From Gammaproteobacteria bacterium Ga0077554 (GTDB lineage Bacteria > Pseudomonadota > Gammaproteobacteria > Ga0077554 > Ga007554), in NCBI GenBank assembly GCA_001464585.1, contig LNFF01000022.1:1-64000 (forward strand): a DNA stretch of 64,000 nucleotides, given 5' to 3'. The notes under the pieces were generated by a model that was not told where the DNA came from, searched no databases, and saw only the letters and a list, made by a program, of their open reading frames with translations. The position numbers were made by a program, and so were the translations under genes. Positions 37,154-37,824 of the stretch are shown here, in pieces. Each line of letters begins with the position of its first letter. The stretch's first letter is position 1.

Positions 37154-37824
37154 CCCACACCGTTGAAGACCGAACCCTCGCTTTGGCTGGCGTTTTCCAG
37201 GCTGTGCAATTGGTCAAGCAGATTGCGCACCAGGGCAGTGCGCCTGCCGATAATTTTGAAGCAAGCCTGGGCAGCATTTTTAATACCCAACCCGCCACCA
37301 CCGCCGCCGTGTATGGAGGCGTGCGCAACGTGATGGAGGGAATTAAACTGTTGCGTATCCATATGGGCGGCACGGATCAAGTGCGTGATCTTGAAATTAC
37401 CCGCTACGTTGTAGCCATACTTTATCTGGAACGCCAACTGGCGAAGCGGCCACCCATGCTGCAACAAATCGGTGACGGCATAGAAAAAGCCCGCGCACAG
37501 GCAGAGCATTTTGTCGCTCCCGGCATCCTGCCTCCCGCGACACTTGCACATCCCTGTGCGGCGTCAAAAACCCATTCCAATGTCATTGCCAGCCTGGCGG
37601 GGTTGTACAGCGATACCATCAGCACGCTCACGCCCCGTATTATTGTGAGTGGCGAACAGGGATATTTATCCAATGCCGAAAATGCCAACAAGGTGCGTGC
37701 GCTGCTGCTGGCAGCGATACGTTCGGCGGTACTCTGGCGCCAATGCGGTGGGGGTCGATTACAATTGATTTTCGGCCGTAACAAGATGATCCGTGAAGCG
37801 GAGCATTTACTGAAAATGGATTAA
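37150..37824 (+). CDS. hflD: HflD-like lysogenization regulator / high-frequency lysogenization protein, with repeat insertion
   Basis: 224 residues. The start (ATG 37150) overlaps the mnmA stop, as in E. coli. [20 protein letters not shown], then [30 protein letters not shown] and [20 protein letters not shown] are typical. HflD is a membrane-associated protein that binds lambda CII; its normal role is unclear. Between [10 protein letters not shown] and [16 protein letters not shown] there is an extra [20 protein letters not shown] (about residues 121-141), absent from the E. coli protein as I recall it. It is encoded by the same repeat found in xseB and the glycosylase gene, inserted without changing the frame. 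Confidence 0.92.
37521..37563. repeat. Intragenic repeat (family G) inside hflD
   Basis: The segment from CGGCATCCTGCCTCCCGCGA through CATCCCTGTGCGGCG is the reverse complement of 56987-57029, with a few differences. Both are translated in the same frame as GILPP-two residues-LAHPCAA. A third, reverse-oriented copy is in xseB at 27849. Confidence 0.8.

What the first reader, a model, noticed from the sequence alone, without database searches (positions are those of the whole stretch)
37490..37580. hflD carries the same repeat as an internal insertion, read in the opposite sense
The 43-bp segment 37521-37563 is the reverse complement of 56987-57029 and both translate to GILPP-two residues-LAHPCAA. 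In hflD it lies in the loop between two helices, leaving the rest aligned to E. coli HflD. The element is therefore open in both directions in at least one frame, a property expected of a selfish element adapted to coding sequence.
Basis: partly seen in the sequence, partly recalled or inferred. Interest (0 to 1): 0.7.

Follow-up and report, generated by a model that had tools for sequence, protein, structure and literature searches.

The report
Mobile hairpin inserted inside working genes
The extra 17 amino acids in this bacterium's HflD protein come from a 51-letter DNA hairpin that has copied itself into dozens of its everyday genes without breaking their reading frame, and the same hairpin is scattered through other Gammaproteobacteria.

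Summary
The repeat is real and larger than reported. hflD carries exactly 51 bp (37513-37563, minus strand) that all 20 other genomes with a retrieved HflD lack. It is one copy of a two-hairpin unit with compensatory base changes in both stems, present over 100 times in this 2.9-Mb genome. Copies are 51 bp, or 66/69 bp when one hairpin is enlarged. At ten sites relatives have the empty site, showing exact insertion without target duplication. About 45 copies lie in ORFs with a Pfam domain (pheT, alr, glk, purH, aroQ, lysA, lpxK, gcvP, coaX and others), read mainly in four of six frames. A pattern survey found the unit in 35 of 369 gammaproteobacterial genomes, patchily; elsewhere it sits inside type I restriction, UvrA, PolA and PriA genes.

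The xseB copy (27848-27913) does.

Best reading: a coding-tolerant mobile hairpin resembling Rickettsia palindromic elements, of a family I did not find described. Its mobilising enzyme is unknown; association with Y1 (RAYT-type) transposase genes was tested and not found.

The parts
37513..37563 (-). 51-bp two-hairpin element inside hflD; read by hflD as [17 protein letters not shown] (element reverse strand, frame 0)
   Evidence: CM hit 81.3 bits; empty site in 20 other genomes, DNA-level junction gapless
37150..37824 (+). hflD coding sequence carrying the insertion
   Evidence: matches E. coli HflD/YcfC 1qz4, E 4.5e-39; orthologs
56987..57037 (+). second 51-bp copy, at the 3' end of the uracil-DNA-glycosylase-like gene, read as (reverse strand) GILPPTALAHPCAA near the C-terminus
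   Evidence: CM hit 80.4 bits; most orthologs stop before this tail and G002 has a different composite tail
57038..57057 (+). partial tandem unit (first hairpin only, CGCCGCGCAGGGACGCGCAG) abutting the second copy
   Evidence: sequence; same start as the unit consensus
56975..57835 (-). uracil-DNA-glycosylase-like ORF whose C-terminus is made of the element
27848..27913 (+). third copy, 66-bp variant with an enlarged second hairpin, inserted near the N-terminus of xseB and read in the forward direction, frame 2 (PHMDVQVLRESEARGSGCREQP)
   Evidence: CM hit 52.2 bits; same-genus ortholog has LAKKNT directly followed by APATVINFE; gapless junction
27829..28143 (+). xseB (exodeoxyribonuclease VII small subunit), probable TTG start
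   Evidence: orthologs in all 7 family members; start inferred from the conserved LAKKNT

Best explanation
A small non-autonomous mobile element of about 51 bp. It is two hairpins joined by AAGTG (stem 1 GYRCA-nGGA-nGYRC; stem 2 GYCGY-GGGA-GGC-AGGAT-GCC-GGRA-GCGRC). It inserts exactly, with no target-site duplication and a weak preference for N|C targets. Its length is a multiple of three (51; 66 or 69 when a hairpin is enlarged) and it is nearly stop-free in most frames, so insertions into genes add 17, 22 or 23 residues instead of breaking them. Insertions at permissive surface or inter-domain sites survive; the rest are purged, so intergenic copies are over-represented. Most likely it moves as a folded single strand by a hairpin-recognising enzyme acting in trans (HUH-like chemistry fits the lack of target duplication). 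It spreads between lineages inside horizontally transferred genes such as type I restriction genes. SHOWN: unit, structure by covariation, exact insertion, in-gene locations, polymorphism between relatives, patchy distribution. INFERRED: single-strand mechanism, enzyme in trans, purging, selfish nature.
For: Covariation: 97% of cells paired, 33 double-change cells against 10.1 shuffled, 0/500 shuffles; repeated on 39 copies from other genomes: 39 against 11.2, 0/500. Copy number: 144 CM hits at E<=1, some of them the same place on both strands. Length: 76 of 95 copies 51 bp, 8 more 66 or 69; the copies from other genomes are almost all 51 bp. Abutting tandem copies fix the unit: L204, and 51-bp spacing in G087. 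Empty sites gapless at ten places: hflD, pgl, amiC-like L220, coaX, glk, purH, L249, aroQ (69 bp), yhdP (69 bp), xseB (66 bp). In-gene copies; PDB alignments show the extra residues in AroQ, Glk, PurH, Alr and HflD. Frames among the Pfam-supported copies: forward 1 commonest (about 20), reverse 0 about 12, forward 2 about 8, reverse 2 about 5, forward 0 one (coaX). Spread: HsdM of Nitrosomonas eutropha and of a Rhodanobacteraceae MAG are 87% identical and carry the element at the same site.
Against: No transposase was linked to it: over 56 Y1_Tnp loci (about 175 kb) only a few weak or moderate element hits, about what the background density gives, and G244 has the element but no Y1_Tnp match. 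The target preference is weak, unlike the strict targets of IS200/IS605. Movement was inferred from species comparison, not observed. Six-frame openness is common for such GC-rich sequence. Similar sites across genera in uvrA show that some copies are old and vertically kept.
Confidence: 0.62

Rival explanations
1. A REP-type element mobilised by a RAYT (Y1 HUH) transposase, i.e. an ordinary REP family in an unusual place.
For: Hairpins, exact insertion without target duplication, and Y1_Tnp genes present in all 8 family genomes. Intragenic REPs are documented (PMC3733652).
Against: No GTAG or CGTC tag; two coupled hairpins of 51 bp, not one of 20-40 bp; no enrichment next to Y1_Tnp genes in two independent clades; G244 has copies without a Y1_Tnp hit.
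Confidence: 0.2
2. A fossil family no longer mobile, spread long ago and now only inherited and lost.
For: Mean pairwise identity of 51-bp copies is 76%; the same uvrA site is shared by three Xanthomonadales genomes; a 24-bp in-frame internal deletion in the G002 glk copy shows erosion.
Against: Large copy-number differences within one genus (G001 10, G000 68 pattern matches), many empty sites in the same genus, and pairs of copies that are identical (maximum identity 1.0).
Confidence: 0.2
3. A functional RNA or DNA signal (processing, regulation, chromosome organisation) placed and kept by selection.
For: Conserved structure with compensatory changes.
Against: No shared position relative to genes, both orientations, host genes unrelated, absent from closest relatives at each site, no Rfam match.
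Confidence: 0.08
4. Protein-level motif (a conserved GILPPxxLAHPCAA peptide) rather than a DNA element.
For: The same peptide occurs in many ORFs.
Against: The same DNA is read in at least five frames giving unrelated peptides; the HflD orthologs lack it.
Confidence: 0.01

Closest known systems
Rickettsia palindromic elements (RPE)
   Same: Small palindromic repeats in many copies, inserted in frame in unrelated pre-existing genes, with both genic and intergenic copies (PMC10969869, PMC3733652)
   Different: RPEs are about 100-150 bp (RPE-1) or CGTC-tagged (RPE-4, RPE-6) and confined to Rickettsiales in what I read; this is a 51-bp two-hairpin unit of Gammaproteobacteria, untagged, read in at least five frames. 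Sequence relation to RPE was not tested.
Intragenic GTAG/CGTC REP repeats (Di Nocera et al. 2013, PMC3733652)
   Same: Palindromic, abundant in Gammaproteobacteria, sometimes inside genes, with uvrA and DNA polymerase I among the hosts
   Different: Those are 20-40 bp single hairpins with a GTAG or CGTC tag, mostly intergenic; this unit has neither tag and keeps a 3n length
Cyanobacterial small dispersed repeats (from memory, not read)
   Same: Very small, apparently mobile repeats without coding capacity
   Different: Different lineage and sequence; not compared here
MITEs such as ERIC or Correia elements
   Same: Non-autonomous, multicopy, structured
   Different: MITEs carry terminal inverted repeats and duplicate the target; neither is seen here

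Membership tests
Rickettsia palindromic element-like (by behaviour) | Multicopy palindromic repeat inserted in frame in unrelated genes | tested here: met
Rickettsia palindromic element-like (by behaviour) | Orthologs of host genes lack the insert | tested here: met
Rickettsia palindromic element (by descent) | Sequence homology to RPE-1 to RPE-10 | not tested
   no RPE sequence was compared; sizes and reported tags differ (PMC3733652)
GTAG REP | Conserved unpaired GTAG (or close variant) at one end of a single 20-40 bp hairpin | tested here: not met
   unit alignments A2 and A4 show no terminal GTAG and two hairpins
CGTC REP | Terminal CGTC, 8-9 bp stem, CCA tail | tested here: not met
   5' end is CGnC with n mostly C or A, stem 1 is 4-5 bp, no CCA tail
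RAYT-mobilised REP | Y1_Tnp gene flanked by the repeats | tested here: not met
   56 Y1_Tnp loci in two sets, no enrichment
MITE | Target-site duplication | tested here: not met
   ten gapless empty-site junctions
Known Rfam RNA family | Match to a covariance model | tested here: not met
   no match up to E 5 on 8 loci

The most novel reading that the evidence does not exclude
A previously undescribed class of coding-adapted mobile hairpin, outside Rickettsia, whose unit length is held at multiples of three by living inside genes, which moves as a folded single strand without target duplication by an unknown enzyme, and which crosses between bacterial orders inside restriction-modification and repair genes.
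Probability: 0.35. Interest if true: 0.82.

Novelty: new variant of a known kind. Interest (0 to 1): 0.64.

Why it matters
In-frame palindromic insertions in housekeeping genes are best known from Rickettsia, where small genomes and weak selection were natural explanations. Here a bacterium with a 2.9-Mb genome has about 45 such insertions in ORFs with recognised domains, many of them in core enzymes, and the same unit is scattered over many gammaproteobacterial families. That gives a large natural set of 17-residue insertions for mapping which protein positions tolerate change, a route by which new protein segments arise from one sequence in several frames, and a testable case for how a 51-bp element moves without its own gene. 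It also warns annotators that such segments in conserved proteins are element-derived.

Tried and rejected
Rfam search of eight copies: nothing. RAYT association: tested in the family and in seven other genomes, rejected. Searching papers for the sequence itself in six spellings: no paper; searches for coding palindromes found RPE and GTAG/CGTC work only; subscription papers are not held, so an earlier description cannot be excluded. HflD structure from the single sequence: pLDDT 37, not usable; an alignment-based fold was not attempted because the ortholog loci are not among the sources the tool names as allowed. Single-copy folding energies were not significant (most z near 0), so the structure claim rests on covariation only. 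Six-frame openness as proof of adaptation: rejected as weak (24% of shuffles). Codon-score classification alone missed many genic copies and was replaced by Pfam evidence. Phage, plasmid and E. coli collections: one partial phage match, one plasmid match inside a primase gene, none in E. coli, so no sign that phages or plasmids are the usual carriers.

Full report
OBSERVATION. The inverted pair is real: 37515-37563 against 56987-57035, 49 nt, 90% complementary. hflD is on the plus strand and the uracil-DNA-glycosylase-like ORF on the minus strand, so both genes read the same strand and the same frame of the repeat. A third copy at 27848-27913 lies in xseB and is read in the other direction. 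The core pattern with up to three mismatches matches 30 places in the genome and none when reversed.

UNIT AND STRUCTURE. Twenty-eight copies align without gaps over 68 columns. The conserved part is columns 8-58, 51 bp. A structure with stems 12-16/21-25, 30-34/54-58 and 39-41/47-49 is supported by covariation: 97% of cells paired against 89.8% shuffled, 33 double-change cells against 10.1, and no slid register comes near. The same structure counted on 39 copies from other genomes gives 39 double-change cells against 11.2. Folding energies of single copies are not remarkable, so the claim rests on covariation. The structure could act as RNA or as single-stranded DNA; the data do not separate these.

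COPY NUMBER AND LENGTH. A covariance model gives 144 hits at E<=1 in the 2.9-Mb genome; the tool scored 150 of 1457 first-look candidates, and some hits are the same place on both strands, so 'over 100 copies' is the safe statement. Of 95 copies examined, 76 are 51 bp, five 69, three 66, six 52, three 50 and two other. The 66/69-bp forms have an extra segment in one hairpin, again adding a multiple of three. Head-to-tail abutting copies (L204; 51-bp spacing in G087) fix the unit ends independently of alignments.

EMPTY SITES. HflD in 20 other genomes lacks the 17 residues. At DNA level, taking the unit out of this genome's sequence gives a gapless junction with relatives at ten sites: hflD, pgl, amiC-like (L220), coaX (L223), glk, purH, L249, aroQ (69 bp), yhdP (69 bp) and xseB (66 bp). 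There is no duplicated or lost target base. The base after the element is C in 57 of 66 copies, with weaker preferences beside it. In the same-genus genome G002 the glk copy is present but has lost 24 bp in frame, showing erosion under the same constraint. In two cases (aroQ, purH) the empty site itself resembles the first nine bases of the unit, which might indicate a target preference; hflD and xseB do not show it.

HOST GENES AND FRAMES. Pfam scans of ORFs spanning the copies put about 45 copies in ORFs with recognised domains, about 30 of them inside a domain or between two domains of one protein: pheT, an electron-transfer flavoprotein, pgl, alr, rlmL-like, glk, lysA, purH, aroQ, argA-like, gpsA, gcvP, lpxK, an SMC hinge, coaX, yhdP (two copies) and others. 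PDB alignments show the extra residues as a gap in the structure sequences of AroQ, glucokinase, PurH, HflD and alanine racemase. Frames in use: forward 1 ([16 protein letters not shown]) most, then reverse 0 ([17 protein letters not shown]), forward 2 ([16 protein letters not shown]), reverse 2; forward 0 once (coaX); reverse 1 not clearly (a 52-bp copy in an ispE-like ORF is part of a composite insertion). All six frames of the consensus are open, but so are 24% of dinucleotide shuffles. My sampling of ORFs began from codon scores and ORF length, so the frame counts are approximate; the two rare frames were then tested on purpose.

DISTRIBUTION. All seven other genomes of the family have the core pattern. 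In 369 genomes of the class 35 match, patchily, with high numbers in single lineages such as G332 (87). Named matches include Thermomonas, Stenotrophomonas, Lysobacter, Gilvimarinus, Methylomonas koyamae, Nitrosomonas eutropha, Pseudomonas and Sedimenticola. There the copies often sit in type I restriction subunits (HsdM five times, HsdR, HsdS), UvrA (three), PolA, PriA, RecG, NrdA, ClpX-like, PhnI and PhnJ, TsaD, MurD and Tgt. HsdM of Nitrosomonas eutropha and of a Rhodanobacteraceae MAG are 87% identical with the element at the same place, which suggests carriage between orders inside a transferred gene. UvrA of three Xanthomonadales genomes shares one site, which suggests long vertical retention. 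It is absent from the E. coli genomes at this sensitivity and nearly so from phages and plasmids.

MECHANISM. Exact insertion without duplication, conserved hairpins and tandem abutting units are what single-strand (HUH) transposition would leave, but the obvious enzyme group, Y1/RAYT, is not associated with the element in either clade tested. Retention of 3n length and the frame bias are best explained by survival of insertions that do not break proteins; about half of the examined copies are outside recognised genes although genes fill most of such genomes (general knowledge), which fits purging of harmful insertions.

COMPARISON. In behaviour it is closest to Rickettsia palindromic elements; in host range it overlaps with intragenic REPs (PMC3733652). 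It fails the tag test of both REP superfamilies and the duplication test of MITEs. I therefore file it as a new variant of a known kind, not as an RPE or a REP.

LIMITS. Open-access papers only; genomes other than the named records are anonymous; no expression data; the HflD model is unusable.

Noticed in passing
window 4485-4523, 5744-5818, 8530-8666, 9826-9929, 15627-15734, 61640-61744: A separate dispersed inverted repeat family (TGTCATTTCGA...GGATTTCTC) with up to 103-nt arms.
   Followed up: no
window 2165-2230 and 37835-37926: Another repeat (CCGTTCGCCCTGAGCCTGTCGAAGGGC), present as an inverted pair just downstream of the hflD stop codon; terminator-like position.
   Followed up: no
window 57608-57636 and 57717-57745: Inverted CCCCCTTTGCAAAGGGGG repeat inside the N-terminal linker of the uracil-DNA-glycosylase-like ORF; it encodes variants of NPPLQKGGRGD that are also seen in the family orthologs, perhaps a second coding-tolerant repeat.
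   Followed up: partly
L205, L256, L259 (own genome), L312 (G002): A wider related repeat GGATGGCGGTTCTTGCGCATCC(C)TG^CGCTCACCGCACTTGGGCATCCTGCCCGGC, into which the 51-bp unit is inserted at ^, i.e. nested insertions.
   Followed up: partly
L341 (G002 glk): Eroded copy of the same insertion as in this genome, with a 24-bp in-frame deletion.
   Followed up: yes
L104: A copy on a contig labelled Klebsiella pneumoniae MAG, although no E. coli genome has the element; possible misbinned contig.
   Followed up: no
L115: A copy at the end of a 945-aa ORF on a contig labelled Phycisphaerae (Planctomycetes); transfer outside Proteobacteria or misbinning.
   Followed up: no
L397 (Lonsdalea populi plasmid NZ_CP072857.1): The only plasmid match lies inside a DNA primase gene next to xerC.
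   Followed up: partly
L120: Two adjacent genes, phnI and phnJ, each carry their own copy.
   Followed up: no
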